From Conexibacter sp. SYSU D00693 (GTDB lineage: Bacteria; Actinomycetota; Thermoleophilia; Solirubrobacterales; Solirubrobacteraceae), in assembly GCF_017084525.1 (NCBI RefSeq), contig NZ_CP070950.1:4278001-4342000 (forward strand): a stretch of 64,000 nucleotides of DNA. Reading direction: 5' to 3'. The first letter of the stretch is position 1, and the number at the start of each line of letters is the position of its first letter. The notes under the pieces are model-generated. The model was given only the letters and a program-made list of their open reading frames with translations, was not told the origin of the DNA and did not search any database. Below, piece by piece: positions 21,082 through 38,812 of this stretch. Both the position numbers and the translations under genes were made by a program.

Positions 21082-21134
21082 GTGGCGGTCGCTGGTCGGC
21101 CCTGAGGGAGGGGAAGCCGCCCGCGGTCACGTCC
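21082..21134. repeat. 53-base linker repeat, copy 1
   Basis: Starts GTGGCGGTCGCTGGTCGGCC and ends GCCGCCCGCGGTCACGTCC. By eye 46 of 53 positions match 38560-38612 without gaps. It precedes the type A and type B palindromes here, in the same order as at 38.6 kb. The whole stretch 21027-21288 has no gene. Confidence 0.75.
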
Positions 21135-21158
21135 CGAGGGCGGTCGTGCCGGTTCAGG

Positions 21159-21215
21159 CGATCGTGACCCTGTCATCTCCGGCGTCCCACGCCGGAGATG
21201 ACAGGGTCACGATCG
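21159..21215. repeat. type A palindromic element, copy 1 (perfect 27-bp arms)
   Basis: Left arm 21159-21185 (CGATCGTGACCC ... CCGGCGT) and right arm 21189-21215 are exact reverse complements around a 3-nt loop CCC. The core ACCCTGTCATCTCCGGCGT recurs at 38521 and 38689. There is no T-tract, so it is not a classical terminator. It sits between converging genes (DHH protein and SRPBCC protein). Confidence 0.88.
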
Positions 21216-21230
21216 TCGGCGGCCGCAGGA

Positions 21231-21284
21231 CATCGAGTGGCGTCCGACGTCGTCCCATGACGTCGACCCGCCGACGGATGGCCC
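21231..21284. repeat. type B palindromic element, copy 2
   Basis: Begins CATCGAGTGGCG and ends CGCCGACGGATGGCCC as in copies 1 and 3. The inner stem differs (CGACGTC ... GACGTCG). It ends 5 nt before the stop codon of the converging SRPBCC gene. Confidence 0.75.
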
Positions 21285-21288
21285 GGAG

Positions 21289-21759
21289 TCAGCGCGTCGC
21301 GGTCTGCTCCACGCTCCCGCGCCACTCGCCCGTCTCGCCGCCGGGGCCGCGGGCCTCGATCATCGCCTTGAAGCGCTCGAGGTCGCCCTTGACGCGGCGC
21401 TTGACCAGGCCGAGGGCGTCGCCGACCTTCTCGGCCGGGCCCTCGGGCTGGTAGTCCAGCTGGACCATGATCCGCGTGTGGCCCTCGCCCACGCGGTGGA
21501 AGGTCACGACGCCCGCGTGCTCCGCGCCCGCCTCGGACTCCCAGGCGATGCGCTGGTCGGGCGTCTGCTCGGTGATCTCGGCCTCGAACTCCTTCGCGCG
21601 GCCGGCGACCTTGGTGCGCCAGCGCAGGTGGGTCTCGTCGAGCTGCCGGATCTCCTCGACGCCCTCCATGAACTTCGGGAACTCCTCGAACTGGGTCCAC
21701 TGGTCGTAGGCGGTCCGCACGGGGACGCCCACGTCGATGCTCTGCTCGATCGTCGACAT
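21289..21759 (-). CDS. SRPBCC/cyclase-dehydrase family protein
   Basis: A 156-residue START-like domain: MSTIEQSIDVGVPVRTAYDQWTQFEEFPKFMEGVEEI is the family's N-terminal strand-helix. It continues with the sheet (RIAWESEAG, VTFHRVGEGHTRI) and the closing helix VKRRVKGDLERFKAMIEAR. Coenzyme Q-binding COQ10/cyclase-like proteins of this size are very common in actinobacteria; the ligand is unknown. The short start at 21759 was preferred since the upstream extension is Arg/Pro-rich. Confidence 0.88.
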   Translation of the reverse strand: MSTIEQSIDVGVPVRTAYDQWTQFEEFPKFMEGVEEIRQLDETHLRWRTKVAGRAKEFEAEITEQTPDQRIAWESEAGAEHAGVVTFHRVGEGHTRIMVQLDYQPEGPAEKVGDALGLVKRRVKGDLERFKAMIEARGPGGETGEWRGSVEQTATR

Positions 21760-21850
21760 GCCCCTCGGGGTCCCCGGCGACCTCGCCGCCATGCGTGGTC
21801 AGGACCCGCGTCAGGACGTCCTGGCGCCGCGCGACCATGTGCGGCCCCCG

Positions 21851-24769
21851 ATGCCACTCGAGCTCGTCACCGGCCCCGCGAACGCCGCCAAGGCGGGCGT
21901 CGTCCTGGACGCGATGCGCCGCGACCAGGACCGCGACCCGATCCTCGTCGTGCCGACGTTCGCGGACGTCGAGCGCTACCGGCGCGAGCTCGCCGAGGGC
22001 GGCGTCGTCTTCGGCGCGCAGGTCCTGCGCTTCGCCTGGCTCACCCGGGAGGTCGGGCGGCGCGCGGGGGTGCGCGAGCGCCCGCTGGGCCGCCTGGCGC
22101 GCGAGCGCGCGGCGGTGGCCGCCACGGCGGCGGCGACGCTCGACCGCCTCGCGCCCGCGGCGGCGACCGACGGCTTCCCCGCCGCGCTGCTGCGCCTGGT
22201 CGCCGAGCTCGAGCAGGGCCGCATCGACCCGCCCCGCTTGACCCGCGCGCTGCGTGACTGGGCGGGCGACGACGAGGGCCGCCGCGCCTACGGCGACGAG
22301 GTCAGCGCGCTCTACGCCGGCTACCGCCGCGTCCTCGAGCGCCTGGGGCGCAAGGACGACGACCTCGCGGCCGGCGCGGCGCTCGACGCGCTGCGCCTGG
22401 CGCCGCACACCTGGGGCTCCACGCCGGTGCTCTTCTACGGCTTCGACGACCTCGAGCCGCTGCAGCTCGACGCGATCGACACGCTCGCCAACCACGCGGG
22501 CGCCGAGGTCACCTTCGCGCTGACCTTCGAGGCGGGCCGCGAGGCGACGAAGGCGCGCGCCCGGACGCACGCCGACCTCCTCGCCCTGGGCGCCACCGAG
22601 CGCACGCTGCCGGCCCAGGACGACCACTACGCGCCGCACGCGCGCGTCGCGCTGCACCACGTCGAGCGCTCGCTGCTCGAGCCCAAGGCCAAGAAGGTCG
22701 CCGCGGGCGGCGCCGTGCGCTGCCTGGCGGGCGGCGGCGAGCGGGCCGAGGCCGAGCTCGTCGCCGGCCACGTCAAGCGCCTGATCACCCGCGAGGGGCT
22801 CGCGCCCGACGACGTGGCGATCGTCCACCGCGGCCTGCGCGACGCGGCGCCGCTGCTCGAGCAGGTGCTGCGCGCCGCGGGCGTGCCGGCCGCGATCGAG
22901 CGCCCGGTCCCCGCCGGCCACACCGCGCTCGGGCGCGCCGTCGTCGCGCTGCTGCGCTGTGCCACCGGGGAGGGGACCGCCGACGACCTCCTCGCCTGGC
23001 TGCGCGCGCCCGGCCTGCTCGAGGTGCCCGCCTTCGCCGACGAGCTCGAGGCGACCTGCCGGCGCGAGGGCGCTCGCACCGTCGCCGAGGCCCGGGCGAT
23101 CTGGGAGCAGTCCCGCTGGCCGCTCGACGCTCTGGACCGCGTCGCCGCCGCGGCACAGCGCGGGCCGAAGGAGCTGTGCGAGCGCCTGGCGGGTGAGGCA
23201 GCGGCCCTGCTCGCCGCGCCGTGGCGGCGCCAGGCGCGCGTGCTCGACGGCTCCGAGGTGGCCGACGCGCAGGTCGCGGCCCGGCTGCGCTCGGCGCTGC
23301 GCGAGCTCGGTGGGCTGCCGCCCGAGCTCGTCCCCGACGCCGCCGGCCTCGCCGGCCTGCTCGCCCGCCTCGACGTCCACCTCGGCGACCCGCCCGGCCC
23401 CGGTCGCGTCACCGTCGCCACCCCGCTGCAGCTGCGCGCCCGCCGCGTCCGCGCGCTGTTCTGCATGGGTCTCCAGGAGGGCGTCTTCCCGGCCCCCGGC
23501 CGCCCCGAGCCGTTCCTCGGCGACGAGGAGCGCCGCGAGGTGAACGCCGCCTCGGGCCTGCGGCTGCGCCTGCACGAGGACCGCCTCGCCGCCGAGCGCC
23601 ACCTGCTCTACGTCACCGTCTCGCGGCCCACCGACCTGCTCGTCCTCTCGTGGCACGACGCCGACGACGAGGGCAAGCCCCTCGCGCGCTCCCCGTTCGT
23701 GGACGACGTCTGCGACCTGCTGCGCGGCGACCTCGTCGCCAAGGCCGAGCGCCGCGAGCTCGGAGAGGCCGGGTGGGCGGCCGGCGACGCGCCGACCGAG
23801 CACGACGCCGCGCGGGCCGCCGCCGCGCAGCGCCCCGCCGTCGCCGAGGCGCCGATCCCGCCGCTGCGCCACGAGCCCGTCCTGCAGGCGCTGCGCGACC
23901 GCCCGTCGTGGTCGGCGTCCGGCCTCGAGGCCTGGGCGGCCTGCCCGGTCCGCTGGCTCGTGGAGCGCCAGCTGCGGCCCGAGACGCTCGTCCCCGACCC
24001 CGAGCCGCTCGTACGCGGCAGCCTCGCCCACCAGGTGCTCGAGGACGCGCTCAAGGCGCTGACCGAGGCCGGCCACGGGCTCACGCCGCAGGGCCTCCCG
24101 CGCGCCCGGGCGCTCCTGCGGGAGGCCCTCGACGAGCACGCCGAGCACTTCCGCATCTCGGTCAACCCCGAGCGCCTGCGCTCCGCGCTGCGCCGCCTCG
24201 AGGTCGACCTCGTCGCCTGCCTCGAGCACGCCGCGCACGCCGGCAGCACGTTCACCCCCGAGCGCTTCGAGCTGCGCTTCGGCGGCCACGACGACCCGCT
24301 GCCCGCCCTCGAGCTCCTCGACGGCGAGCTCAGGCTCCAGGGCCGGATCGACCGCCTCGACCTCGGCCCCGGCGGCACCGAGGCGATCGTCTACGACTAC
24401 AAGGGCCGCACCGCGCCCCGCCCGGCGGACTGGGGCGAGCAGGGCAAGCTGCAGGTGGGCCTCTACATGCTCGCCGTCGAGCACCTGCTCGGCCTCCGCG
24501 CCGCCGGCGGCTTCTACCAGCCGCTCAACGCGTCGGCGCCCATCGCCCGCGGCGTGCTGCGCGCGGGGAGCGACCCCGGCCTGCGCCTCACCCGCGGCGA
24601 CCGCCGCCCCGACGAGGAGGTCGACGCGGTCCTCGACGCCTGCACGCAGGCGGCCTGCACCGCGGTGCGCGAGATCCGCGCCGGCAAGCTGGAGGCACGC
24701 CCGCACAGCTGTGGCCCGCAGGGCTGCCAGTACCCGTCGATCTGCCGCGCCGAGGTCGCGTCGCAGTGA
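21851..24769 (+). CDS. AddB-like helicase-nuclease subunit (PD-(D/E)XK)
   Basis: A 972-residue protein. The N-terminus has a decayed P-loop (TGPANAAKAG), as in AddB-type subunits that no longer act as a helicase. The C-terminal RecB-like nuclease shows IDRLDLGPGG followed by AIVYDYKGRTAP (the Asp and DYK catalytic residues). One Cys (WAACPVRWLVE) plus a final cluster (CGPQGCQYPSIC) gives the four-cysteine iron-sulfur 'staple' pattern. With the next gene, overlapping by 4 nt, it should form an AddAB-type complex that resects double-strand breaks for recombination. Confidence 0.87.
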   Translation: MPLELVTGPANAAKAGVVLDAMRRDQDRDPILVVPTFADVERYRRELAEGGVVFGAQVLRFAWLTREVGRRAGVRERPLGRLARERAAVAATAAATLDRLAPAAATDGFPAALLRLVAELEQGRIDPPRLTRALRDWAGDDEGRRAYGDEVSALYAGYRRVLERLGRKDDDLAAGAALDALRLAPHTWGSTPVLFYGFDDLEPLQLDAIDTLANHAGAEVTFALTFEAGREATKARARTHADLLALGATERTLPAQDDHYAPHARVALHHVERSLLEPKAKKVAAGGAVRCLAGGGERAEAELVAGHVKRLITREGLAPDDVAIVHRGLRDAAPLLEQVLRAAGVPAAIERPVPAGHTALGRAVVALLRCATGEGTADDLLAWLRAPGLLEVPAFADELEATCRREGARTVAEARAIWEQSRWPLDALDRVAAAAQRGPKELCERLAGEAAALLAAPWRRQARVLDGSEVADAQVAARLRSALRELGGLPPELVPDAAGLAGLLARLDVHLGDPPGPGRVTVATPLQLRARRVRALFCMGLQEGVFPAPGRPEPFLGDEERREVNAASGLRLRLHEDRLAAERHLLYVTVSRPTDLLVLSWHDADDEGKPLARSPFVDDVCDLLRGDLVAKAERRELGEAGWAAGDAPTEHDAARAAAAQRPAVAEAPIPPLRHEPVLQALRDRPSWSASGLEAWAACPVRWLVERQLRPETLVPDPEPLVRGSLAHQVLEDALKALTEAGHGLTPQGLPRARALLREALDEHAEHFRISVNPERLRSALRRLEVDLVACLEHAAHAGSTFTPERFELRFGGHDDPLPALELLDGELRLQGRIDRLDLGPGGTEAIVYDYKGRTAPRPADWGEQGKLQVGLYMLAVEHLLGLRAAGGFYQPLNASAPIARGVLRAGSDPGLRLTRGDRRPDEEVDAVLDACTQAACTAVREIRAGKLEARPHSCGPQGCQYPSICRAEVASQ

Positions 24770-27700
24770 CGCCCGGCGCCACCGCCGCGCCGGCGCGGCA
24801 GCTCACCGACGAGCAGGCCGCCGCCGTCGAGCGCCGCTCCGGCCCGCTGCTGCTCGCCGCCAACGCGGGCTCGGGCAAGACGACGGTCCTCGTCGAGCGC
24901 CTCGTGCGCCTCGCCACCGAGGACGACGTCCGCCCCGGCAACGTCCTGGCGATCACCTTCACGGAGAAGGCGGCCGGCGAGCTGCGCGCCCGCGTCCGCG
25001 CGCGGTTCACCGAGCTCGGCGAGCGTGAGCTGGCCACCGAGGCCGAGGGCGCCTGGATCTCGACCGTCCACGGCTTCTGCATGCGCGTGCTCAAGGCGCA
25101 CGCCATCGCGGCAGGCCTCGACCCGGCCTTCCGCGTCCTGGACGACCGCGAGGCGCGCGGGCTGCGCGAGGACGCCTTCGAGCGCGCGCTGGCCGGCTTC
25201 CTCGACGAGGCGCAGAACGGCCACCGCGCCGAGGCGCTGGACCTCGTCGCCGCCCGGACGCCCGACCGGCTGCAGGACATGGTGGAGGCCGTGCACGGCG
25301 AGCTGCGCTCGCGCGGGCAGACCCGCCCGCGGCTGCCGGAGGTGCCGCCCGCGCCGCTGCCCGACCCGGCCACGCTCACGGGCGCGGCCCGGCGCGCGCT
25401 CGCGCACCTGGAGGGCCAGGGCGACGGCCAGCGCGTCGTGAGCGCGCGCGAGAAGGTCGAGCGCTGCCTGCGCGCCCTCGAGCGCGGCGCGCTGGACCCG
25501 GGGGCCGTCGAGGCCGCGCGCTTCAAGCCGGGCAACGTCAAGGCGCTGGGCCATGCCGACTGCGCGGCCTTCCTCGACGAGCTCGACCGCCACGGCGACG
25601 CGGTCGGCGCGCACCGCGCCCACCACGACCTCGGCCTGCTGGACGAGCTCCTGGGCCGCTACGCCGACGCCTACGCCGCGGCCAAGCGCGCCGCCGGCGC
25701 CGTCGACTTCGACGACCTCGAGCTGCTCACGCGCGACCTGCTGCGCGACGAGCCCGCCGTCGCCGCCGCCTACCGCCGGCGCTTCCAGCGGGTGATGGTC
25801 GACGAGTTCCAGGACACCAACCCGCTGCAGCTCGAGCTCCTGCGCCTGCTCGACAGCGGCCACACGTTCGTCGTGGGCGACGAGCTGCAGTCGATCTACG
25901 GCTTCCGCCACGCCGACGTCGAGGTCTTCCGGGCCGAACGCCGCCGGCTGGGGGAGCAGGGCGCGACCGCCACGCTCGCGCGCAACTTCCGCAGCGCCCC
26001 CGAGGTCCTCGGGGCGGTCAACGCCGCCTTCACCCAGGTGCACGGGCGCGGCTTCACGCCGCTGGCCGGCGGCCGGGCGCCCGAGCGCGGCCGGCCCGTC
26101 GACGGACCGCGGGTCGAGCTGCTGGTCACCGACACGGAGGGGTGGGACGAGGACCCGCAGCTCGCCGCCGCCGTCGGCGACGGCCTGAGCGCCGAGCGCA
26201 CGTGGCGCTGCGCCGAGGCGCGCCTGGTGGCCCAGCGCGTCGCCGACCTGCTCGCGGGCGGCGGCTTCGAGCCGCGCGACGTCGTCGTCCTCACCCGGGC
26301 GGCCAGCGACATGGCGACCTACGAGCAGGCGCTGCGCGACGTCGGCCTGCCGACGCTCGCGGCCGGCGCCGGCGGCTTCTGGGCCCGCCGCCAGGTCCTC
26401 GACCTCTGCGCGCACCTCGCGGCGCTGGCCAACCCGCGCGACGAGCCCGCGCTGCTGTCGCTGCTGGCCTCGCCGCTGGCGTCGATCTCCCCGGACGGCC
26501 TCGTCGCGATCGGCGCCGCGCGCCGGCCCGGCCGCCGCCACGAGGCGCTCGAGGCGCCCGACGACGTCCTCGCCGCGATGCCACCCGGCGACGCGCGCCG
26601 GCTGCAGGAGTTCGGTGCCTGGTTCTGCGCCCAGCGCGCGGCCGCGCCGCGCCTGGGGCTCGACGAGCTGCTCGAGCGCGCGGTCGTCGACCGCGGCTAC
26701 GACCTCCACGTCCTCGGCCTGCCCGACGGCCGCCGCCGGCTGGCCAACGTCCTGAAGCTCGCGCGGATGGCCGCGCAGTTCGAGCTGCGCCGCGGCCGCG
26801 ACGTCCGCGCCTTCATCGACGTCGCGACCAAGGAGGTCGAGGACCAGGCGCGCGAGGCCGAGGCGGTCGTCGAGCTGGGCGACAGCGACGCCGTGCGGCT
26901 CATGACCATGCACGCCTCGAAGGGGCTCGAGTTCCCCGTCGTCGTGTGCGCCGACCTCGGCCGCAAGCCGCAGCTGTCCTCGCCTGAGCTGGCCGTCTCG
27001 CCCGACGGCCGCGTCGGCCTGAAGCTCGTCGACGTCCGCGGCGGGCGCGCCGACGCGCTGGCCCTCGCCGAGCTGCGCGGCGCGCTGCGCGACCGCGAGC
27101 GCCGCGAGGACGAGCGCGTGCACTACGTCGCGATGACGCGCGCCGAGGAGCTGCTCGTCGTCGCGGGGGCCGTGGACCTCGCGAAGTGGCCCGAGCCGGG
27201 CGAGCACGGCACGGCGCCCATCGGCTGGCTCGCCCCGGCCCTCGTGCCGCGCGTCGACGCGCGGCTCCGCGAGGCCGCCGACCAGGAGGTCGTCTGGGAG
27301 CGCGACGGCCACCAGGCGCGCGTGCGGCTCGTGCGCAACGCGCCCGACACGGTGGGGGAGGTGCTGCGCCTGGACGCGGACTCGCCGGCCCCGCGCCAGC
27401 CCGCCGAGCAGCTCGCGCTGGGCGTCGGCGGGGCCGCCGCGCTGCCCGAGCTGCCGGCGCCGCCGCCGGCCGGCGTGGCGACGCTGAGCTACTCGTCGCT
27501 GTCGGCCTACGCCCAGTGCCCGTACCGCTGGTACCTCGAGCGCGTCCTGCGCCTGCCGCCGGAGACCGAGGTCCCGCCCGCGGTCCAGGAGATGCTCGCG
27601 ACGACGAGCACGACGCTGCCCGAGGCCGCGCCCGGTGGCCTGGACCCCCGCACCCGCGGCTCCATCGTCCACGAGCTGCTCGAGACGCTCGACCTCGCGA

Positions 27701-29999: not shown

Positions 30000-30770
30000 G
30001 TGAACGGGGCGGACATCGACCAGGGGGCTCAGGCCCGGCTGCGCGAGGACAAGGTCCTCCTGCAGCGCTTCCAGCGCACGCAGGACCCGCAGCTGCGCGA
30101 CGAGCTCGTGCGCCGCTTCCTGCCGCTCGCGCGCAAGCTCGCGCGGCGCTACGACCGCGCCGACGAGCCCTTCGAGGACCTCGTCCAGGTCGCCAGCCTC
30201 GGCCTCGTCAAGGCCATCGACCGCTTCGACGCCTCGCGTGAGGTGGCGTTCTCGAGCTACGCGGTCCCGACGATCCTCGGCGAGCTGCGCCGCCACTTCC
30301 GTGACAAGACCTGGTCGGTCCGCGTGCCGCGCGACCTCCAGGAGCTCGCCCTCAAGGTCGAGCGGGCGCTCGGCGAGCTCCAGCGCGAGCTGCACCGCGC
30401 GCCGACGGTCCCGGAGCTCGCCCAGCGCGTCGGCGCCTCGCAGGAGGACGTGCTCGAGGCCCTGGAGGCCGGCGCCGCGCACCGCGCGACGTCGCTGCAG
30501 TCCCCGCGGGGCAGCGACGACGAGCAGGGCGACACGCTCGGCGACACGATCGGCACCGCCGAGGACGGCTTCCAGCTGGCCGAGCACCGCGCCACGATCT
30601 CGGCCCTGCTCGACGTCCTCGCCCCCCGGGAGCGCGAGATCCTGCGCCTGCGCTTCGAGGAGGACCTGACCCAGGAGGAGATCGGCCGGATCGTCGGCGT
30701 CTCCCAGATGCAGGTCTCCCGGCTCATCCGCCGATCGCTCACGCGGCTGCGCGACGCGGCCGACCGCTAG
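30000..30770 (+). CDS. RNA polymerase sigma factor, SigB/SigF subfamily (first of tandem pair)
   Basis: A 256-residue group 3 sigma-70 factor. Region 2 is LARKLARRYDRADEPFEDLVQVASLGLVKAIDRFD, with the family motif SSYAVPTILGELRRHFRD; region 3 spans APTVPELAQRVG; region 4 is LDVLAPREREILRLRF with the HTH TQEEIGRIVGVSQMQVSRLI. Group 3 factors of this type direct general stress or sporulation genes and are usually held by an anti-sigma kinase. GTG start with a good ribosome-binding site (aaggagcgagag). It shares its layout and many motifs with the next gene. Confidence 0.94.
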   Translation: MNGADIDQGAQARLREDKVLLQRFQRTQDPQLRDELVRRFLPLARKLARRYDRADEPFEDLVQVASLGLVKAIDRFDASREVAFSSYAVPTILGELRRHFRDKTWSVRVPRDLQELALKVERALGELQRELHRAPTVPELAQRVGASQEDVLEALEAGAAHRATSLQSPRGSDDEQGDTLGDTIGTAEDGFQLAEHRATISALLDVLAPREREILRLRFEEDLTQEEIGRIVGVSQMQVSRLIRRSLTRLRDAADR

Positions 30771-30951: not shown

Positions 30952-31716
30952 GTGACCGACATCATCAGCAGCACGCCGCCGGCGGTGGACGACGACCGGG
31001 AGCTGCTCATCCGCTGGCACGTGCATCGCGACGTGCTGGCCCGCGAGGAGCTCGTGGCGCGCATGCTGCCGCTGGCGCGCAGCCTCGCCCGCCGCTACGC
31101 CGGCAAGGGGGAGCCGCTGGACGACCTCGAGCAGGTCGCCTGCGTGGGCCTGCTCAAGGCCATCGACCGCTTCGACGTCGGGCGCGAGGTGAAGTTCTCG
31201 ACGTTCGCCGTGCCGACCATCGCCGGCGAGCTCAAGCGCCACTTCCGTGACCGCGGCTGGATGCTGCGCGTCCCGCGCGACGTCCAGGAGCTCTCGGGCC
31301 GCCTCACCGGCGTGCGCGAGACCCTCACGAACGACCTCGGTCGCGCCCCCACCGTGACCGAGCTCGCCCAGGCCACCAACGCCGACGAGGAGCAGGTCCT
31401 CGAGGCGCTGTCCGCCGGCGACGCCTACCGCACGCTCTCGCTCGACGAGCCGCTCGTCGACGGCGCCGGCGCGCACGAGGCGATCGGCGGGCCGGACGAG
31501 GGCTTCGAGCAGGCCGAGCACCGGGTCGTGCTGCGCGACGGCCTCGTCGAGCTGGCCCCGCGCGAGCGGCTCATCCTGCGCCTGCGCTACGTCGAGGGCC
31601 TGACCCAGCGCGAGATCGCCGGGGAGGTCGGCATCTCGCAGATGCACGTCTCCCGCCTCCTGCGCCGCTCGGTCGACGAGCTGCGCGAGCGGCTGACGAT
31701 GCCCCAGGCCGCGTAG
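30952..31716 (+). CDS. RNA polymerase sigma factor, SigB/SigF subfamily (second of tandem pair)
   Basis: A 254-residue paralogue of the preceding gene: LARSLARRYAGKGEPLDDLEQVACVGLLKAIDRFD, FAVPTIAGELKRHFRDRGW, and the region 4 HTH TQREIAGEVGISQMHVSRLL. Identity is high in regions 2 and 4 and low at both ends, suggesting an old duplication with split target sets. GTG start with ggggaggg upstream. The 180-nt spacer between the two sigma genes holds a small inverted repeat CCGGCC/GGCCGG near 30840 but no gene. Confidence 0.94.
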   Translation: MTDIISSTPPAVDDDRELLIRWHVHRDVLAREELVARMLPLARSLARRYAGKGEPLDDLEQVACVGLLKAIDRFDVGREVKFSTFAVPTIAGELKRHFRDRGWMLRVPRDVQELSGRLTGVRETLTNDLGRAPTVTELAQATNADEEQVLEALSAGDAYRTLSLDEPLVDGAGAHEAIGGPDEGFEQAEHRVVLRDGLVELAPRERLILRLRYVEGLTQREIAGEVGISQMHVSRLLRRSVDELRERLTMPQAA

Positions 31717-32245: not shown

Positions 32246-32902
32246 TTGACCCGCCCCGCGGCCATCCTCGACATCGACGGCACGCTCGTCGACACGAACT
32301 ACCACCACGCCGTCGCGTGGTTCCGTGCCTTCCGCCAGCACGGCCACGTGATCCCCCTGCACAAGATCCACCGCAGCATCGGCATGGGCGGCGACCAGCT
32401 CGTGTCGACGCTCACCGACGCGGAGGTCGACGAGCGCGACGGCGACGACATCCGCAGCGCGGAGAAGGCGCTGTACCTCGCGATGATCGAGGAGGTCGAG
32501 CCGCTGCGCGGCGCCCGCGCGCTGCTGGAGGACCTCAAGGCACGGGGCCACACGATCGTCCTGGCGTCCTCGGCGAAGGCCGACGAGGTCGACCACTACC
32601 TCGAGCTGCTCGACGCGCGCGAGCTCGCCGACGCCTGGACCACGTCCGCCGACGTCGAGTCGACCAAGCCCGAGCCCGACCTCGTCCTCGCGGCCCTCGA
32701 GAAGGCCGGGACGAAGGAGGCGGTGATGGTCGGCGACTCGACCTGGGACTGCATCGCCGCCAAGCGCGCCGGCATCCAGACGATCGCCGTGCGCACCGGC
32801 GGCTTCAGCGACGAGGAGCTCCTCGAGGCGGGCGCCGAGCGCGTCGTCGAGTCCATCGAGGAGCTGCGCCAGACGCTGGACGACACGCCGCTGGGCGGTT
32901 GA
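32246..32902 (+). CDS. HAD-superfamily hydrolase, phosphoglycolate-phosphatase-like
   Basis: A 218-residue protein. Motif I is ILDIDGTLVDTNYHH, motif II VLASSAKADEVDHYL, motif III TKPEPDLVL and motif IV VMVGDSTWDCIAAKRAG. A four-helix cap lies between motifs I and II. It probably dephosphorylates a small sugar phosphate or phosphoglycolate. TTG start, 7 nt after the DUF6328 stop. Confidence 0.88.
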   Translation: MTRPAAILDIDGTLVDTNYHHAVAWFRAFRQHGHVIPLHKIHRSIGMGGDQLVSTLTDAEVDERDGDDIRSAEKALYLAMIEEVEPLRGARALLEDLKARGHTIVLASSAKADEVDHYLELLDARELADAWTTSADVESTKPEPDLVLAALEKAGTKEAVMVGDSTWDCIAAKRAGIQTIAVRTGGFSDEELLEAGAERVVESIEELRQTLDDTPLGG

Positions 32903-32931
32903 CGCCCGGGCCCCGCGGGGAGGTCAGCGAC

Positions 32932-33174
32932 ATGGTCACCCTCGAGGTCCCGCAGCCGGTCCAGCCGGCCCAGCCCGTCGTCCCGGAGGCGCCGACCGTC
33001 CCGACCCCGGAGCCGGCGCCGCCGCCCGGCGGTCCCGGCAACCCGCAGGGCCCGGACGTCCCGGCGCCGCAGGAGCCGGTCACGCCCGCCGTGCCCGACG
33101 AGCCGCCGCCCCCGCAGCCCGACGGCCCCGACGCGCCCCAGCCCGAGCAGCCGCCGGCGCCCGAGACGGTCTAG
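32932..33174 (+). CDS. small proline-rich acidic protein
   Basis: An 80-residue protein with 31 Pro, no Lys, Arg, His, Cys or aromatic residues, and no signal peptide. It contains PPP and PPPP runs that need EF-P for translation. Strong evidence of expression: the ribosome-binding site GGGGAGG 8 nt before the ATG, and a perfect rho-independent-type hairpin 6 nt after the stop. It should be fully disordered. Function is unknown. Confidence 0.65.
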   Translation: MVTLEVPQPVQPAQPVVPEAPTVPTPEPAPPPGGPGNPQGPDVPAPQEPVTPAVPDEPPPPQPDGPDAPQPEQPPAPETV

Positions 33175-33179
33175 GACGC

Positions 33180-33212
33180 ACGAAGGGCCCGCTGTGCAGC
33201 GGGCCCTTCGCC
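33180..33212. terminator. strong hairpin terminator after the proline-rich gene
   Basis: Perfect 13-bp arms CGAAGGGCCCGCT and AGCGGGCCCTTCG around GTGC, immediately after the gene. It can serve both this gene and the converging ferritin-like gene. Confidence 0.85.
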
Positions 33213-33264
33213 TCGACGAACCGCCCCGCCGCGCCCTTGCGCGCGGCGTGCGGACTGGACTGCG

Positions 33265-33780
33265 CTAGGCGAGACCTTCCTTCTCGTACTCGCGCAGGAA
33301 GCCCTCGAAGAGCCGGCGGTGGCCCTCCTCGTCGCGGAGGATCGCGATCACCATGTCGTTGGTCACGGGGTCGACGCCCTCGGTGACCTCGATGATGCGG
33401 TTGTAGTGCTCGATGGCGCCGGTCTCGGCCTCGATGACGCCCTTGATGACGTGGACGATGTCCGTCTGCTGCGAGGGCGGCTGGAGGTAGTTCTGCTCCG
33501 GCGTGAAGTCCATCGAGCCCGGGACCACGCCGTAGAGCTCCTTGATGCGGTTGGCGAACTGCTGCGCGTGGCCGAGCTCCTCCTGGATGTCGGTCTGGAG
33601 GGACTCGATGATCTCCTGGGCGCGCACGCCGTCCGGGTTGACCGAGTTCGTGATGTAGCTCATCACCGTCTCGATCTCCATCCAGTAGGCCTTCTTGAGC
33701 AGCTCGATGATCTGCTCGCGCTCGGCCGTCTTGTCGTCGGAGAGGATCCCCTGGGACGCACTGCGGACTGTGGCGGACAT
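33265..33780 (-). CDS. ferritin-like diiron protein (bacterioferritin type)
   Basis: A 171-residue four-helix bundle. Metal ligands come from helix A (YWMEIETVMSY), helix B (IQEELGHAQQFANRI), helix C (VIEAETGAIEHYNRII) and helix D (RDEEGHRRLFEGFL), the ExxH pattern of ferritin/bacterioferritin/rubrerythrin-like oxidases. It probably stores iron or detoxifies peroxide. The ATG has no ribosome-binding site but a GGGTAG box sits 10 nt upstream. Confidence 0.87.
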   Translation of the reverse strand: MSATVRSASQGILSDDKTAEREQIIELLKKAYWMEIETVMSYITNSVNPDGVRAQEIIESLQTDIQEELGHAQQFANRIKELYGVVPGSMDFTPEQNYLQPPSQQTDIVHVIKGVIEAETGAIEHYNRIIEVTEGVDPVTNDMVIAILRDEEGHRRLFEGFLREYEKEGLA

Positions 33781-33790
33781 GGTCTTGCGA

Positions 33791-33815
33791 CTACCCACGC
33801 CACCCCGCGTGCAAC
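33791..33815 (-). promoter_or_regulatory. candidate SigB/SigF-type promoter of ferritin-like gene
   Basis: Reading the minus strand: GTTG (33815-33812), 15-nt spacer, GGGTAG (33796-33791), then 10 nt to the ATG. This fits the actinobacterial SigB/SigF consensus GTTT-N14-16-GGGTA and would give a nearly leaderless mRNA under the control of the nearby sigma factors. Confidence 0.4.
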
Positions 33816-33844
33816 CGGCCGCCACAGCGGGAAGCCCGGCTGGC

Positions 33845-34453
33845 ATGAGCAAGCTCGAAGGCAAGAAGATCGCGATCCTCGCGACGGAGGGCGTGGAGCA
33901 GGTCGAGCTCGTCGAGCCGCGCAAGGCGCTCGAGTCCGAGGGCGCCCAGATCACCCTGGTGTCGCTCGAGGAGGGCGAGTTCCAGGGCTTCGACCACCTC
34001 GACAAGGCCGACACGTTCACCGCCGACAAGGCGGTCGCCGACTGCTCGGCCGACGACTTCGACGGCGTCCTGATCCCGGGCGGCGTGGCCAACGGCGACT
34101 TCCTGCGCGCCGACGAGGACGCGGTGCGGTTCGTCCGCGCGTTCTTCGACGCGGGCAAGCCCGTGGCGGCCATCTGCCACGCGCCGTGGATCCTCGCCGA
34201 GGCTGACGTGGTCCGCGGCCGGAGCATGACCTCGTTCCCGTCGCTGAAGACCGACCTGCGCAACGCGGGCGCCGAGTGGGTGGACGAGGAGGTCGTCGTC
34301 GACCAGGGGCTGGTCACCTCGCGCAAGCCCGACGACATCCCGGCGTTCAGCGCGAAGGCGATCGAGGAGTTCTGCGAGGGCAAGCACGGCGGCCAGCGCC
34401 CGAGCGGCCGCGACGCGCGCATCGAGCAGGACGTCGCGGCCGGGCACGCCTAG
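33845..34453 (+). CDS. DJ-1/PfpI-family protein (glyoxalase/deglycase or YhbO-like)
   Basis: A 202-residue class I glutamine-amidotransferase-like fold. The nucleophile elbow AAICHAPWILAEADVVRGR holds the conserved Cys, and the active-site Glu is in ATEGVEQVEL. Sequence and length match PfpI/YhbO/YraA stress proteins that deal with glycated or aldehyde-damaged proteins. The last ~20 residues (SGRDARIEQDVAAGHA) are a polar tail. Divergent from the ferritin-like gene. Confidence 0.9.
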   Translation: MSKLEGKKIAILATEGVEQVELVEPRKALESEGAQITLVSLEEGEFQGFDHLDKADTFTADKAVADCSADDFDGVLIPGGVANGDFLRADEDAVRFVRAFFDAGKPVAAICHAPWILAEADVVRGRSMTSFPSLKTDLRNAGAEWVDEEVVVDQGLVTSRKPDDIPAFSAKAIEEFCEGKHGGQRPSGRDARIEQDVAAGHA

Positions 34454-34462
34454 CGGACGCGA

Positions 34463-34513
34463 CGCAACGACGGTTGCGCGGAGGGTGCCCGGACCCCGGT
34501 TCGGGCATCCTCC
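34463..34513. terminator. two consecutive hairpins between the PfpI-like gene and ku
   Basis: CGCAAC-GACG-GTTGCG (34463-34478), followed by a larger imperfect stem: GGAGGGTGCCCGG (34480-34492) pairs with CGGGCATCCTCC (ending 34513). The second ends 5 nt before the ku ATG and leaves ku with no visible ribosome-binding site. It is probably a terminator for the upstream gene, possibly also a leader structure of ku. Confidence 0.5.
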
Positions 34514-34518
34514 AGCTG

Positions 34519-35442
34519 ATGCCGCGCTCGATCTGGACCGGCGCGATCAGCTTCGGGCTGGTCACGGTCCCCGTGAAGATGTACAGCGCCGTCCAGCGCA
34601 AGACGGTGCGGTTCCACCAGCTCAACAGCAAGACGGGCGTGCGCATCGCCCAGAAGCGGGTGGACCCCAGCACGGGCGACGAGGTCGCCTACGAGGACCT
34701 GGTCAAGGGCTACGAGCTCTCGCCCGACCGCTACGTCGTCATCGAGCCGGGCGAGCTCGAGGCGCTCGACCCGGTCAAGACGAAGACGATCGACATCGAG
34801 GACTTCGTCGACCTCGCGGACATCGACCCGGTCTTCTACGACCACCCGTACTACCTCGCGCCCGGCGCGGGCGGGGCCAAGCCCTACCGCCTGCTGCTCG
34901 ACGCGATGGAGGAGACGGGCAAGGTCGCGATCGCGCGGGTGGTCATCCGCTCCAAGGAGAACCTCGTCGCGCTGCGCCCGATGGGGGACGTGCTCGGGAT
35001 GGCGACGATGCTGTTCCCCGACGAGGTCGTCGACCCCGACAAGCTCGACGAGGTCCCGTCGGCTGACGAGGTCAAGACGACCAAGCGCGAGCTCGACATC
35101 GCCAAGCAGCTCGTCGACTCGCTCGCCGGCGACTGGGAGCCCGACAAGTACCACGACACCTACCGCGAGGAGGTCCTGTCGCTCATCGAGCGCAAGGCCG
35201 CCGGCGAGGAGATCGTGGTGCAGCCCGAGCGCGAGGAGGAGTCCGCGCCGGTGCCGGACCTCATGAGCGCGCTGAAGGCGTCGCTGGACGCGGTGCGCGA
35301 GCGCACGGGCGACAAGGACGAGGCCAAGCCCGCCGCGGGCGCCAAGAAGAAGGCCCCGGCCCGCAAGCCCAAGGCCACCACGGACAAGCCCAAGACGACG
35401 TCTTCGGGGTCCGGGCGCAAGAAGACCACGAAGTCCGGGTAG
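34519..35442 (+). CDS. ku: non-homologous end-joining protein Ku
   Basis: A 307-residue bacterial Ku opening with the standard MPRSIWTGAISFGLVTVPVKMY. The Ku core continues through FYDHPYYLAPG, LRPMGDVLGMATMLFPDEV and the bridge region DKYHDTYREEVLSLIERKAAGEEI. The C-terminal ~45 residues are a Lys-rich DNA-binding tail (KKKAPARKPK, SGSGRKKTTKSG). The homodimer encircles DNA ends and recruits LigD; no ligD is in the window. The next gene starts 9 nt later, so they form an operon with topoisomerase IB. Confidence 0.96.
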   Translation: MPRSIWTGAISFGLVTVPVKMYSAVQRKTVRFHQLNSKTGVRIAQKRVDPSTGDEVAYEDLVKGYELSPDRYVVIEPGELEALDPVKTKTIDIEDFVDLADIDPVFYDHPYYLAPGAGGAKPYRLLLDAMEETGKVAIARVVIRSKENLVALRPMGDVLGMATMLFPDEVVDPDKLDEVPSADEVKTTKRELDIAKQLVDSLAGDWEPDKYHDTYREEVLSLIERKAAGEEIVVQPEREEESAPVPDLMSALKASLDAVRERTGDKDEAKPAAGAKKKAPARKPKATTDKPKTTSSGSGRKKTTKSG

Positions 35443-35451
35443 TCGCCCGGC

Positions 35452-36486
35452 GTGGCAGCGATCGCCGCGCCGAGCCCCGGACGCCTGCGCCGCGTCGACT
35501 GCACCGGACCTGGACTGCGCCGACGGCGCCAGGGCCGCGGCTTCACCTACCTCGACGAGGAGGGGATGCGCATCGAGGAGCAGGAGGTCCTCACGCGCAT
35601 CCACGAGCTCGTCATCCCGCCCGCCTGGGAGGACGTGTGGATCTGCCCGTACCCGGGCGGCCACATCCAGGCCACGGGCATCGACCAGAAGGGGCGCAAG
35701 CAGTACCTCTACCACCCGCGCTGGCGCGAGCGCCGCGACCAGGCGAAGTTCGACGACATGGTCGCCTTCGCCCGCGAGCTGCCGCGGATGCGCGAGGCGG
35801 TGGCCGACGACCTGGCGCGCGGCGACCTCAGTGCCCGCCACGTCCTCGCCGCGGCCGTGCGGCTCCTGGACCGCGGCTTCTTCCGCATCGGCTCCGAGGA
35901 CTACGCCGTCAAGAACGAGACCTACGGCCTGGCGACGATGCACAAGCGCCACTGCCGGGTCGACGGCGACGTCCTGCGCTTCGACTACCCCGCCAAGCAC
36001 GGCAAGCGCCGCATCCAGGCGGTCATCGACCCGCAGGTCGCGGAGCTCCTGGCGACGCTCAAGCGCCGCCGTGGCGGCTCGCCCGAGCTGCTGGCCTACA
36101 AGGACGGCGGTCGCTGGCGCGACGTCAAGAGCGCGGACATCAACGCGTACCTCAGGGACATCACCCACGTCGACGTGACGGCCAAGGACTTCCGCACCTG
36201 GGGCGCGACGGTCGTGTGCGCGGTCGCCCTGGCGGTCGCCGAGGAGCCGACGTCGAAGACCGCGCGCAAGCGGACGGTCACGCGCGCGGTCAAGGAGGTC
36301 GCCTACTACCTGGGCAACACGCCGGCCGTCGCGCGGGCGTCGTACATCGACCCGCGCGTCATCGACCGCTTCCACGACGGCGAGACGATCCGCCACGCGC
36401 TGCCGGCCCTGGGCGCCGACGGCGACGGGACGGCGATCCAGGGACCGGTCGAGGCGGCGGTGCTGGACCTGCTCGAGTCGGCCTAG
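35452..36486 (+). CDS. DNA topoisomerase IB (eukaryotic/poxvirus type)
   Basis: A 344-residue protein. The N-terminal beta domain is FTYLDEEGMRIEEQEVLTRIHELVIPPAWEDVWICP, then GHIQATGIDQKGRKQYLYHPRWR. The catalytic domain has FFRIGSEDYAVKNETYGLATMHKRH, KDFRTWGATVV, and the nucleophile Tyr in ARASYIDPRVID. It relaxes supercoils through a 3'-phosphotyrosine. GTG start. Pairing with ku suggests repair under desiccation or radiation stress, an inference from operon context. Confidence 0.94.
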   Translation: MAAIAAPSPGRLRRVDCTGPGLRRRRQGRGFTYLDEEGMRIEEQEVLTRIHELVIPPAWEDVWICPYPGGHIQATGIDQKGRKQYLYHPRWRERRDQAKFDDMVAFARELPRMREAVADDLARGDLSARHVLAAAVRLLDRGFFRIGSEDYAVKNETYGLATMHKRHCRVDGDVLRFDYPAKHGKRRIQAVIDPQVAELLATLKRRRGGSPELLAYKDGGRWRDVKSADINAYLRDITHVDVTAKDFRTWGATVVCAVALAVAEEPTSKTARKRTVTRAVKEVAYYLGNTPAVARASYIDPRVIDRFHDGETIRHALPALGADGDGTAIQGPVEAAVLDLLESA

Positions 36487-36508
36487 GGCCGACCCGGAGG
36501 GACGGCTA

Positions 36509-36877
36509 GGCGGCGGAGGACTCGGCCTCGTCGAGCGCGGCGAGCGCCTCGTCGCGCGTGCCGCGGATCGTGAAGATCTGGTCGAGGCCGGTGATCTCGA
36601 AGGTCTTGGCGATCGACGCGTCGGTGTTGACGATCGTCAGGCGACCGTCGCGCGAGCGCAGGCGCTTGACCGTGCCGATCAGGACGCCGAGCGCGGTCGA
36701 GTCGAGGAACGTCGTCTCGGACAGGTCGACGACGATCTTCGTGCGCCCGGCCTCGATCGCGTCGCCGAGGGCGGACTTCATCTCGGGCGCGGTGAACAGG
36801 TCGATCTCGCCGCGCACGGCGACGACGTGGCGGTCGCCGTCGGCGGGCTCGCTGGATAGGCCGAACTCGGGTGCCAT
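36509..36877 (-). CDS. STAS-domain anti-sigma factor antagonist
   Basis: A 122-residue single STAS domain (VVAVRGEIDLFTAPEMKSAL). The regulatory site is in FLDSTALGVLIG; the Ser of DSTALG is the residue phosphorylated by RsbW-type kinases in this family. Unphosphorylated, it should bind the anti-sigma factor and free a SigB-type sigma. Last gene of a four-gene minus-strand operon. A good ribosome-binding site (ctaggagc) precedes the ATG. Confidence 0.92.
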
Positions 36878-36894
36878 GGGGTGCTCCTAGTCTT

Positions 36895-37311
36895 TCACGA
36901 TGCGAGGGCGTCGACGTCGCGCCCGCGCCCGAAGATGTCCCAGACCTCGACGACGTTGCCCTCGGGGTCCTCGAAGTAGATCGAGCGGTCGCCGCCGTCG
37001 TGCTCGACGGGCCCGCGATGGTCGACGGCCTGCTCCTGCAGACGGCGCACGAGCGCGTCGAGCTGCTCGGGCGTCGCGGAGAACGCGTAGTGCACGTGGG
37101 CGCCGCCCTCGTCGCCGAACTCCTTCTCGCCCGGCAGCCACAGCCCCAGGCGCGCGTCCTCGCCGGCCGCCAGCCACGTGCGGTCGTCCTCGCGGGCGAG
37201 GCGCTCGAGGCCGACGACCTGCTCGTAGAAGCGCTCCATCGCCGGGCGGTCACGGACCTGGAGCGTCAGCTCGCCGAAGCCGCCGACGGTTGCCGGTGCC
37301 TTGCGGGTCAC
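36895..37311 (-). CDS. VOC-superfamily (glyoxalase/bleomycin-resistance fold) protein
   Basis: A 138-residue protein with two beta-alpha-beta-beta-beta units: FGELTLQVRDRPAMERFYEQVVGLERL and later DRSIYFEDPEGNVVEVWD. His in AHVHYAFS and Glu in NVVEVWD are likely metal ligands. The substrate is unknown. Its stop is 17 nt before the STAS gene and its start overlaps the previous gene by 4 nt, so an enzyme is embedded in a sigma-control operon. Confidence 0.88.
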   Translation of the reverse strand: MTRKAPATVGGFGELTLQVRDRPAMERFYEQVVGLERLAREDDRTWLAAGEDARLGLWLPGEKEFGDEGGAHVHYAFSATPEQLDALVRRLQEQAVDHRGPVEHDGGDRSIYFEDPEGNVVEVWDIFGRGRDVDALAS

Positions 37312-37703
37312 CGGGCCGCGACGTGGATGACGAGGTGCTCGTCGTCGGCCGTGACGTCGTCGGCCAGGCGCTCGAAGACGTTGCCCACGGACGGCAGCAC
37401 GGCCGCCTGCAGCATCGCGCTGGGGCCGCCGTCGCGCAGCGGCCCGACCCGGAGGCGCAGGGCGCCGTCCTCGGTCGTGACGGTCACGCCGAGGTCGTCG
37501 TCGCCGGCGTTCTCGGGGCCGTGGGCGGCGATCGCGTCGGTCACCAGGAGGGCGTCGTCGAGGCGGTCGACCGGGAAGTTCGCGCGGGCGGCGAGCATGC
37601 CGACGACGCGGCCGAGGACCGGGCCGAGCAGGCGCTCGTCGCGGACGCGGATCGTCGCCTCGTTGTCGGGCCCGGGGAGCGCGTGGCCGCTCTGCTCGCT
37701 CAC
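37308..37703 (-). CDS. RsbW-like partner protein, divergent
   Basis: A 131-residue protein from a GTG that overlaps the upstream anti-sigma gene by 4 nt. It contains a helix-rich N-half (LLGPVLGRVVGMLAARANFPVDRLDDALLVTDAIAAHG) like the start of GHKL anti-sigma ATPases, then a sheet (LGVTVTTEDGALRLRVGPL) and a C-terminal helix-strand. The ATP-binding G boxes are not evident. It looks like a degenerate HATPase paired with the intact one, as seen in actinobacterial partner-switching loci. Assignment is tentative. Confidence 0.65.
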   Translation of the reverse strand: MSEQSGHALPGPDNEATIRVRDERLLGPVLGRVVGMLAARANFPVDRLDDALLVTDAIAAHGPENAGDDDLGVTVTTEDGALRLRVGPLRDGGPSAMLQAAVLPSVGNVFERLADDVTADDEHLVIHVAAR

Positions 37704-38134
37704 GCGGCCTCTCCGGCGGTCTCGCGGGTGGCGTCGAGGTCGAAGGTCATGCGCACCTCCGAGCCGGCGCCGGCGCTGCCGAGCTCGAGGGAGGCGGCCA
37801 GCGTGGCGATCAGCGGGAGGCCGAGGCCCAGACCGGGGGAGTCGGGGCGCGGGACCATGCCCTGGCCTTCGTCGGCGACGACGAGCGTCAACCGCCGGTC
37901 GGCGAGCGCGCCGGACACGATCATCGGCCCGTCGCCCTCGGGGTAGGCGTGCACCACGACGTTCGTGCACGCCTCGGTGACGGCGAGCTTGATGTCGGCG
38001 AGGACTCCGTCGGGGACGTCCAGCGCGTCACCCAGACCACCCACGGCGTGGCGGACCACGGCGACGTTCTCCGCGCGCGCGGGAACCCGGAGCTCGAAGT
38101 CCGGCGTGTGCTGGTCTGGTCCGTCGTCGTGCAT
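37700..38134 (-). CDS. anti-sigma factor / serine kinase, RsbW-SpoIIAB-like
   Basis: A 144-residue GHKL ATPase. The N-box is LADIKLAVTEACTNVVVHAY, the G1 box LVVADEGQGM and the G2 region PGLGLGLPLIATLA. It should bind a SigB-type sigma factor and phosphorylate the STAS antagonist encoded downstream in the same operon; the tandem sigma genes 6 kb away are natural partners. First gene of the operon. Confidence 0.92.
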   Translation of the reverse strand: MHDDGPDQHTPDFELRVPARAENVAVVRHAVGGLGDALDVPDGVLADIKLAVTEACTNVVVHAYPEGDGPMIVSGALADRRLTLVVADEGQGMVPRPDSPGLGLGLPLIATLAASLELGSAGAGSEVRMTFDLDATRETAGEAA

Positions 38135-38163
38135 GCGGCGCCCTGCCCCCCTGGTGGTGACCC

Positions 38164-38200
38164 GGTGGTTCCTGCCCGCTGGGAGGGCAGTTCAACCACC
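38164..38200. promoter_or_regulatory. inverted repeat upstream of the anti-sigma operon
   Basis: Arms GGTGGTT-c-CTGCCC and GGGCAG-ttc-AACCACC around an 8-nt loop, 30-66 nt before the anti-sigma start on the minus strand. It could be an operator or a 5' leader hairpin. Confidence 0.4.
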
Positions 38201-38520
38201 CGTGTCAGCGGGGGCGGCGCAGCATATGCAAGCGCTGCCGCGGCACGCCGCCCGACACCACCGGCGCAACGCTGGTTTCAACGCGCGTGCCCGGGGGGAT
38301 GAGGCGCTCGAGGTCGGCAGACCCCCGACCTCGAGACCGTCGCGTCGATGACACGCCGACCCCCTTCGGCGGATGCGATGACCTCCCCCACACATGCGCG
38401 TCAGGCCGCCACGATGGCGGCCTGTCGTGCGTCTGGGGGCGGGTCGCGGTTCGTGGGCGGTCGTGGAGGAGTCCCGCGTGGGCGGTCGTCGTGGGGGCCG
38501 TGGGCGGGTCGGGCGCGGTG

Positions 38521-38561
38521 ACCCTGTCATCTCCGGCGTGGGACGCCGGAATCGACAGGGT
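38521..38561. repeat. type A palindromic element, copy 2
   Basis: Left arm ACCCTGTCATCTCCGGCGT (38521-38539), loop GGG, right arm 38543-38561 with three mismatches. Its 5' flank GGGCGGGTCGGGCGCG is also found before copy 3. Confidence 0.82.
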
Positions 38562-38654
38562 GGCGATCGCTGTTCGGCAGTGAGGGAAGGGGAGCCGCCC
38601 GCGGTCGCGTCCTCCGTGGGCGGTGCGGGGAGCCGCCCGCGGTCGCGTCCTCCG
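38560..38654. repeat. linker repeat copy 2 with an exact 28-base tandem duplication
   Basis: 38560-38612 matches 21082-21134 at 46 of 53 positions. Inside it, the 28 bases from GGGGAGCCGCCCGCGG to TCCTCCG (38589-38616) are repeated exactly at 38627-38654, with a 10-nt spacer. Confidence 0.8.
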
Positions 38655-38688
38655 CCGTCGTGGAGGTTGCGGGCGGGTCGGGCGCGCT

Positions 38689-38731
38689 GACCCTGTCATC
38701 TCCGGCGTGGCACGCCGGGAATGACAGGGTC
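38689..38731. repeat. type A palindromic element, copy 3
   Basis: Left arm GACCCTGTCATCTCCGGCGT (38689-38708), loop GGC, right arm 38712-38731 with two mismatches. Confidence 0.83.
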
Positions 38732-38751
38732 GCGGTGGCCCAGGGAGTCCG

Positions 38752-38812
38752 GGCCATCGATTGGCGGATCGACCCCGGGACGGCGGGGCGATCCGCCGAC
38801 GGATGGGTCCGC
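38752..38812. repeat. type B palindromic element, copy 3
   Basis: CATCGATTGGCGGATCG ... CGATCCGCCGACGGATGG with an inner CCCCG/CGGGG extension. The stem sequence differs from copy 1 but pairing is kept. It follows type A by 20 nt, as at 21.2 kb. The gene-free stretch 38135-39069 otherwise holds GC-rich filler, the hairpin at 38164 and the palindrome at 38964. Confidence 0.8.

What the first reader, a model, noticed from the sequence alone, without database searches (positions are those of the whole stretch)
21082..38812. Composite non-coding repeat: linker, type A palindrome, type B palindrome
At 21.08-21.28 kb and 38.56-38.81 kb the same three parts occur in the same order: a 53-base linker (46/53 identical by eye), a type A palindrome with the core ACCCTGTCATCTCCGGCGT, then 15-20 nt later a type B palindrome (CATCGAkTGGCG ... 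CGCCrACGGATGG). The second locus has an extra type A copy and a tandem linker. I recognise no named family with this build; it may be a MITE, a REP/BIME-like element or a structured RNA.
Basis: seen in the sequence. Interest (0 to 1): 0.68.

Follow-up and report, generated by a model that had tools for sequence, protein, structure and literature searches.

The report
Modular palindrome repeats at gene ends
This bacterium carries its own family of small mosaic DNA repeats, built from interchangeable hairpin-forming pieces and placed mostly between the ends of facing genes, of the same general kind as the BIME and BOX repeats of other bacteria but with its own sequences and a varied set of parts.

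Summary
In detail: linker, palindrome A and palindrome B recur in the same order at both loci. The 4.43-Mb genome has at least 67 A, 33 B and 68 linker sites. Models of all three were run on 145 other genomes of the family, six of the same genus; 16 (B), 10 (A) and 2 (linker) of them had weak matches only.

The linker is an end motif (T) that also occurs inverted on the far side. A typical unit is T, one to three palindromes, inverted T. A is usually 47 bp and B 51 bp; 10 of 12 B copies with a near A have it 20-22 bp away on the same side. Three more palindrome families (C, D, E) fill the same frame. Of 67 gaps with A or B, 44 are convergent, 21 co-directional and 2 divergent.

Best reading: a lineage-specific, untagged REP/BIME/BOX-like composite repeat. 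No target duplication at A or B and no transposase with these motifs was found. REP/BIME is supported, MITE is not, structured RNA stays open. New variant of a known kind; function unproven.

The parts
9195..9245 (+). Palindrome B alone, in the convergent gap between predicted genes 8530-9099 (+) and 9285-10955 (-)
   Evidence: (76.6 bits)
21053..21113 (+).
   Evidence: (40 bits)
21164..21210 (.). Palindrome A, 47 bp; highest-scoring A copy of the genome
   Evidence: 75.1 bits
21231..21280 (+). Palindrome B (50 bp, diverged upper stem), 20 bp after A
   Evidence: (52.7 bits)
38518..38564 (.). Palindrome A, extra copy outside the frame
   Evidence: 61.8 bits
38531..38591 (+). T motif; its outer half overlaps the preceding A copy
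   Evidence: (37.4 bits)
38589..38664 (+). Inner linker present twice in tandem (two 38-bp units, 32 of 38 identical)
38687..38733 (.). Palindrome A
   Evidence: 65.6 bits
38755..38805 (+). Palindrome B, 21 bp after A
   Evidence: (63.9 bits)

Best explanation
A lineage-specific family of composite small interspersed repeats of the REP/BIME/BOX kind. The unit is an end motif of about 60 bp (T), one to three palindromes from at least five families (A to E), then an inverted T; A and B also occur without T. Shown here: the anatomy, the copy numbers, no comparable copy in the other genomes searched, the placement at gene 3' ends, the regular A-B spacing, presence and absence of A in one tandem pair, and pairing kept through changes on both sides. 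Inferred: the modules spread by copying within this lineage by a route that leaves no target duplication (hairpin-processing HUH/Y1-type action, or template switching and recombination between copies). They persist where they do least harm, between convergent 3' ends, where the transcribed hairpins would act as transcript-end structures (3'-end protection or processing sites, or a weak two-way roadblock).
For: At least 67 A, 33 B and 68 T places; 62 of 67 A and 32 of 33 B score above the best match in any other genome (30.9 and 43.4 bits). Of 67 gaps with A or B, 44 are convergent, 21 co-directional and 2 divergent; convergent and divergent gaps are equal in number on a circular chromosome. 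A lies 20-22 bp away on B's CATCGA side in 10 of 12 B copies with an A within 160 bp (10 of 13 A/B rows). 47 of 51 T-bearing clusters hold at least one of A to E. Covariation score 0.305 against a shuffled mean of 0.151 for A, 0.144 against 0.070 for B; 0 of 500 shuffles as high in both. One of two tandem copies lacks the A module. B is oriented: 5' arm CATCGAGTGG or CATCGATTGG in 31 of 33, 3' arm (reverse complement) CATCCGTTGG or CATCCGTCGG in 22 of 33. The same placement is published for REPs (PMC3733652) and for BOX, RUP and SPRITE (PMC3049150, passages).
Against: No mobilising enzyme was identified: three Y1_Tnp genes exist, the nearest listed A, B or T place is more than 27 kb from each, and one has its own, different palindrome array. 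No empty site in a relative could be read: the one neighbouring gene tested has no match in the six same-genus genomes. No RNA data. The G-U against A-C counts give no sign of RNA selection on one strand. A and B lack the GTAG or CGTC tag of the two large REP super-families. Five A places score no better than the best foreign match, so a few may be chance. The searches of other genomes scored only 39-40 candidates per genome with strict filters, and many of those genomes are incomplete.
Confidence: 0.66

Rival explanations
1. Host-made two-way transcription terminators for convergent genes: the hairpins are there because they terminate, and they resemble each other through shared descent or gene conversion.
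For: Strong placement between convergent genes. B alone sits in ten convergent gaps of 87-138 bp. The A/B module nearest to a stop codon is at a median of 54 bp over 65 gaps with a stop side.
Against: 13 of 67 A/B gaps also hold another short palindrome (36 bp or less) at the strict census cut-off, for example beside B at 3796967 and A at 2089896; two or three of the 13 are of another repeat type, and the other 54 gaps show none at that cut-off. At least 4 T in the 10 nt beyond the hairpin is seen on 2 of 134 A sides and 1 of 66 B sides. A terminator by itself needs no conserved 47- or 51-bp sequence, no T motif and no regular A-B spacing.
Confidence: 0.23
2. MITE: T is the terminal inverted repeat of a non-autonomous transposon moved by a cut-and-paste (DDE) transposase, and A and B are internal structure.
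For: T occurs as inward-facing inverted pairs, 15 pairs 177-318 bp apart among 34 forward T.
Against: 33 of 84 clusters have A or B without T. No excess of flank duplications at A or B. No forward T has its first inverted T between 450 and 6000 bp away. 19 of 34 forward T have no inverted T within 450 bp. T arms of one element are hardly more alike than arms of different elements, 0.581 against 0.551 over 20 elements, p = 0.014. Duplication at the outer edge of T was not tested because conservation fades there.
Confidence: 0.07
3. A structured non-coding RNA or RNA-processing element (for example an RNase III site like that proposed for NEMIS), kept by selection on the RNA.
For: Two full elements fold better than all 100 shuffles each, z = -7.4 and -4.9. 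Pairs covary. Most A and all 12 C copies are 47 bp long, about 22 bp of stem on each side.
Against: B has 19 G-U and 31 A-C cells; A oriented by B in 10 composites has 15 and 12, so neither shows RNA-type wobble pairs in clear excess. Palindromes can also be kept by template switching. No Rfam match in the window. No expression data.
Confidence: 0.15

Closest known systems
BOX elements (Streptococcus; boxA-boxB(n)-boxC, and in S. suis boxE/boxF ends with boxB and boxD modules); passages of PMC3049150 seen
   Same: Composite; variable number and kind of inner modules between end modules; predicted to fold; over-represented between convergent genes
   Different: Here both ends are one motif in inverted orientation, the inner modules are several unrelated palindromes, and A and B also live alone; sequence relation to BOX was not tested
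REP / BIME (palindromic units); abstract, sections 6 and 15 and passages of PMC3733652 seen
   Same: Many dispersed imperfect palindromes with orientation, regular pairs, placement at 3' ends and between convergent genes, termini that can supply stop codons
   Different: 47 and 51 bp instead of 20-40 bp; no GTAG or CGTC tag; no RAYT gene beside them; [quoted passage not shown] tuberculosis, D. radiodurans, Bordetellae, Brucellae and Cyanobacteria
Correia/NEMIS elements (Neisseria); passages of PMC2229807 seen
   Same: Inverted-repeat ends round a variable inside, stem-loops, proposed RNase III link
   Different: NEMIS have 24-bp TIRs and target duplications; no duplication at A or B here, and T is longer and looser

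Membership tests
REP/BIME in the broad, untagged sense | Imperfect palindrome in many dispersed, mostly intergenic copies | tested here: met
   67 A and 33 B sites; 4 A and 0 B inside predicted genes
REP/BIME in the broad, untagged sense | Placement between convergent or co-directional genes | tested here: met
   65 of 67 gaps; 2 divergent
REP/BIME in the broad, untagged sense | Composite arrays with regular spacing | tested here: met
   A-B spacing 20-22 bp in 10 of 13 A/B rows; three A in a row at 3815516, 3815577, 3815639
Tagged REP (GTAG or CGTC super-families) | Unpaired GTAG or CGTC at one end, 20-40 bp unit | tested here: not met
   B ends CATC/GATG and A ends GTGAC/GTCAC pair with each other in most copies; 47 and 51 bp. 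Flanks were looked at by eye only
Tagged REP (GTAG or CGTC super-families) | RAYT gene flanked by the same repeat | tested here: not met
   3 Y1_Tnp genes over the Pfam cut-off; no listed A, B or T place within 27 kb of any; a pattern scan of the three loci found only short partial matches
MITE | Terminal inverted repeats | tested here: inconclusive
   15 of 34 forward T have an inverted T within 450 bp, but the outer edge is blurred and A and B occur without T
MITE | Target-site duplication | tested here: inconclusive
   Not met at A or B: 1 of 67 and 0 of 33 flanks share 3 bp or more, not above shuffled; not tested at the outer edge of T
MITE | Autonomous partner with the same ends | tested here: not met
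   No forward T with its first inverted T 450-6000 bp away in the genome; in 145 other family genomes only two T matches, at 21.2 and 21.3 bits, not read
BOX element | Distinct 5' and 3' end modules round inner modules | tested here: not met
   Both ends are one motif, inverted; sequence relation to BOX was not tested
Any Rfam family | Match at the curated score | tested here: not met
   0 matches in the window; other loci were not scanned
Intrinsic terminator | GC-rich hairpin followed by a T-run | tested here: not met
   4 or more T in the next 10 nt on 2 of 134 A sides and 1 of 66 B sides; TTT on 0 and 1

The most novel reading that the evidence does not exclude
The T element is an exchange platform: a conserved inverted-end frame whose slot accepts unrelated palindromes (A, B, C, D, E) because the moving machinery recognises a hairpin of a set length (47 bp, about 22 bp of stem, in most A and all C copies) and not a sequence. 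That would be a cassette system for hairpins, with the single A and B copies as cassettes outside the frame.
Probability: 0.15. Interest if true: 0.75.

Novelty: new variant of a known kind. Interest (0 to 1): 0.45.

Why it matters
Small composite repeats are, as far as I recall, best described in Proteobacteria and streptococci. This is a well-bounded case in a high-GC lineage, probably Solirubrobacteraceae, with five exchangeable palindrome families in one frame and no comparable copy seen in six same-genus genomes. It offers a test of how such repeats arise and spread without a visible transposase, and of whether repeats at convergent gene ends are tolerated passengers or working transcript ends. 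In practice these copies can confuse terminator, ncRNA and gene-end annotation in this genome.

Tried and rejected
DNA-uptake word (A's 9-bp end as a scattered word): GTGACCCTG occurs 3 times in the window, both strands, against 0.7 expected from base composition; all three are arms of A copies. Only the window was counted. Dropped.

REP of the resident RAYT genes: three Y1_Tnp genes, none near a listed A, B or T place; the one at 286145 has its own GGGGTCTGACCCC arrays. Dropped as direct partner.

Phage or plasmid origin: one B and one A pattern have 0 exact matches in viral contigs; the second locus has no blastn match in plasmids. The phage record collection was not searched.

Homologues in the family: B matches at E <= 0.01 in 16 of 145 other genomes (up to 43.4 bits), A at E <= 0.001 in 10 (up to 30.9 bits), T at E <= 0.001 in 2 (21.2 and 21.3 bits). 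Only the best B match (G123) was read; it is an unrelated palindrome built on GATCGACTGTCGGGTT. The others are judged by score alone. Own T places range from 43.3 down to 21.5 bits, so the two foreign T matches are not excluded by score. One same-genus genome (G010) has an A match at 26.2 bits.

De novo palindromes in two same-genus genomes: 200 kb each of G005 and G006 gave 2 and 0. The scan was strict, finding 1 of the 3 A copies of the window and none of its 3 B, so it says little.

T arms as a covarying stem: one search was mis-anchored for minus-strand copies and is discarded; one search replaces it and shows a small effect.

Empty-site comparison: the neighbour protein chosen had no match in six same-genus genomes. 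In the one named relative (AddB-like protein, 54% identity) neither neighbour of the first locus is found, no match better than E = 0.4. Not pursued.

Rows dropped or added before counts: B counts leave out a weak place at 3145887 (26.6 bits, 59 nt) and a partial duplicate row at 2292660. In one search, 13 E and 4 D pattern matches were set aside by eye as chance, coding, or double hits on C. Twelve weaker T sites from the weight matrix were added to the 68 for the cluster map (80 T). At most 150 candidates are scored per own-genome model search, so counts are lower bounds. C, D and E were counted only in the 391 kb read, except strict C (9 places). The palindrome census used a single shuffle of 2-base blocks as control. 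Letters C, D and E in my notebook entry were given before the census and are not those of this report.

Full report
The window is bases 4278001-4342000 of a single-contig genome of 4,429,419 bases.

The described parts are there. At 21.08-21.28 kb a linker is followed by A (21164-21210) and B (21231-21280). At 38.5-38.8 kb there is an extra A (38518-38564), the linker with its inner part twice in tandem, A (38687-38733) and B (38755-38805). The linkers match at 45 of 53 bases; the next best place for that 53-mer in the window scores 33.

Genome-wide, the A core has 37 matches at up to 3 mismatches and the reversed control none; the strict B pattern has 15 and the control none. Covariance models R1 (B, from 21 copies) and R2 (A, from 32 copies) raise this to 33 B places and 67 A places. 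One weak B place was dropped, and the counts are lower bounds because 150 candidates are scored per search. 54 of 67 A places span exactly 47 bp in every row listed for them and 30 of 33 B places 51 bp; the rest differ by one or two bases. Five A places score no better than the best A match in another genome.

The linker is part of a conserved motif, T, about 60 bp, with a core near GCGGTCGCTGTTCGGCACTGAGGGAGGGG. It is found 68 times. In 15 of 34 cases a forward T is followed 177-318 bp later by an inverted T, with the palindromes between. A weight matrix built from T gave 73 hits, 70 of them intergenic, in 355 kb of fetched sequence and none in the reversed sequence.

Reading T elements without A or B showed other palindromes in the same place. 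A census of the intergenic stretches fetched (52 kb) found 116 palindromes against 3 in one block-shuffled control; 58 were A or B. Three further families stand out. C, GTGAGTGGGGA...TCCCCACTCAC: 10 copies in the sequence read and 9 strict ones genome-wide, 12 places in all, each 47 bp. D, TGACGCCTCGTGCATG...CATGCACGAGGCGTCA: 7 copies. E, GACCGGCGACTTGG...CAAGTCGCCGCTC: 4 copies, of which the census measured one at 47 and two at 63 bp. Of 51 T-bearing clusters 47 hold at least one of A to E in many combinations; of 43 forward T with a palindrome after it, most have it 50-80 bp away, with a range of 40-152. Of 84 clusters 33 have no T: 13 single B, 18 single A, one AA and one AB.

Spacing is regular. 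One search lists 13 A/B rows for 12 B copies with an A within 160 bp. Ten B copies have A on the CATCGA side 20-22 bp away; the other two (at 1762097, with two A, and at 2292651) have A on the other side.

Pairing is kept through changes on both sides. For A the covariation score is 0.305 against a shuffled mean of 0.151, for B 0.144 against 0.070; none of 500 shuffles reached either, and slid controls are lower. The copies are related, so the shuffles overstate the strength, and template switching can also perfect a palindrome. Two complete elements fold at z = -7.4 and -4.9. Against an RNA reading: B on its oriented strand has 19 G-U and 31 A-C cells, and A oriented by B (10 composites) has 15 and 12.

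Gene context comes from a codon-usage caller written here. 67 gaps hold A or B: 44 convergent, 21 co-directional, 2 divergent; 4 A copies fall in predicted genes. With T added there are 79 gaps: 47, 30 and 2, and 7 modules in predicted genes. On a circular chromosome convergent and divergent gaps are equal in number (circularity is assumed), so 44 to 2 is a strong bias. In the window itself the caller gives 14 convergent and 13 divergent of 60 gaps. The Fisher test (46:2 against 6:32) uses a background drawn from stretches chosen for elements and is only indicative. B alone sits in ten convergent gaps of 87-138 bp. 13 of the 67 gaps also hold another short palindrome at the census cut-off, so A and B are not always the only hairpin; in the other 54 a terminator role is not argued against by this.

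The modules behave as separate pieces. In the tandem pair at 3294862/3295187 the first copy has A and the second lacks it, with aligned sequence on both sides; in the pair at 3316659/3316990 the second A is cut short. A and B are poorer in G+C (0.67 and 0.644) than the rest of the intergenic sequence read (0.758). Flank duplications of 3 bp or more: 0 of 33 B and 1 of 67 A, not above shuffled.

Distribution: 146 genomes of the family were searched, own included. Weak matches came from 16 (B), 10 (A) and 2 (T) of the 145 others; 32 of 33 own B and 62 of 67 own A places score above all of them, own T places only just. The six same-genus genomes had no B or T match and one A match at 26.2 bits. 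Many genomes are incomplete, and 39-40 candidates were scored per genome. Viral contigs and plasmids gave nothing.

Known kinds: REPs lie between convergent and co-directional genes near 3' ends, and untagged REP-like families are on record (PMC3733652: abstract, sections 6 and 15, passages). BOX elements are composite with variable inner modules, are over-represented between convergent genes, and in S. suis have alternative end and inner modules (PMC3049150, passages). NEMIS have TIRs and target duplications (PMC2229807, passages). Five paper searches, of which I saw the listings only apart from these three papers, listed no report of such repeats in Solirubrobacter or Thermoleophilia; the longer result sets were listed in part.

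Membership in tagged REPs is not met, MITE is unsupported, and function and mode of spread are inferred.

Noticed in passing
window 52241-52413 (genome 4330241-4330413): Two other palindromes, with cores GGGGTCAGACCCC and GGGACAGTCCC, in a divergent gap; the first has the core of the array beside the Y1_Tnp gene at 286145.
   Followed up: no
L208 1340-1430 and 2251-2361 (genome about 285984-287005): A Y1_Tnp (RAYT-like) gene flanked by short arrays of GACGGGGTCTGACCCCGAG and its complement, period 29 bp on one side: a separate REP-RAYT-like system in the same genome.
   Followed up: partly
window 30096-30347 and 31042-31293: Two neighbouring stretches 77% identical over 252 nt, 946 bp apart, in predicted genes: a likely tandem gene duplication.
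   Followed up: no
genome 4209639-4209685 and 4210582-4210628 (L260, L261): Two C palindromes 943 bp apart; their surroundings were not read.
   Followed up: no
genome 839103-839149 and 514658-514704: A copies overlap the predicted end of a neighbouring gene; at 839103 the gene's stop is the TGA of GTGACCC read on the minus strand, like REPs that supply stop codons.
   Followed up: partly
L089 1480-1600 (G123): A different palindrome (GATCGACTGTCGGGTT and its complement) in another genus of the family; may be that genome's own REP-like family.
   Followed up: no
genome 821471-821495 and 3232008-3232032: Short palindromes GTGGAAGGTGCC/GGCACCTTCCAC and GTGAAAGGTGCC/GGCACCTTTCAC in gaps that also hold A; another small repeat type.
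   Followed up: no
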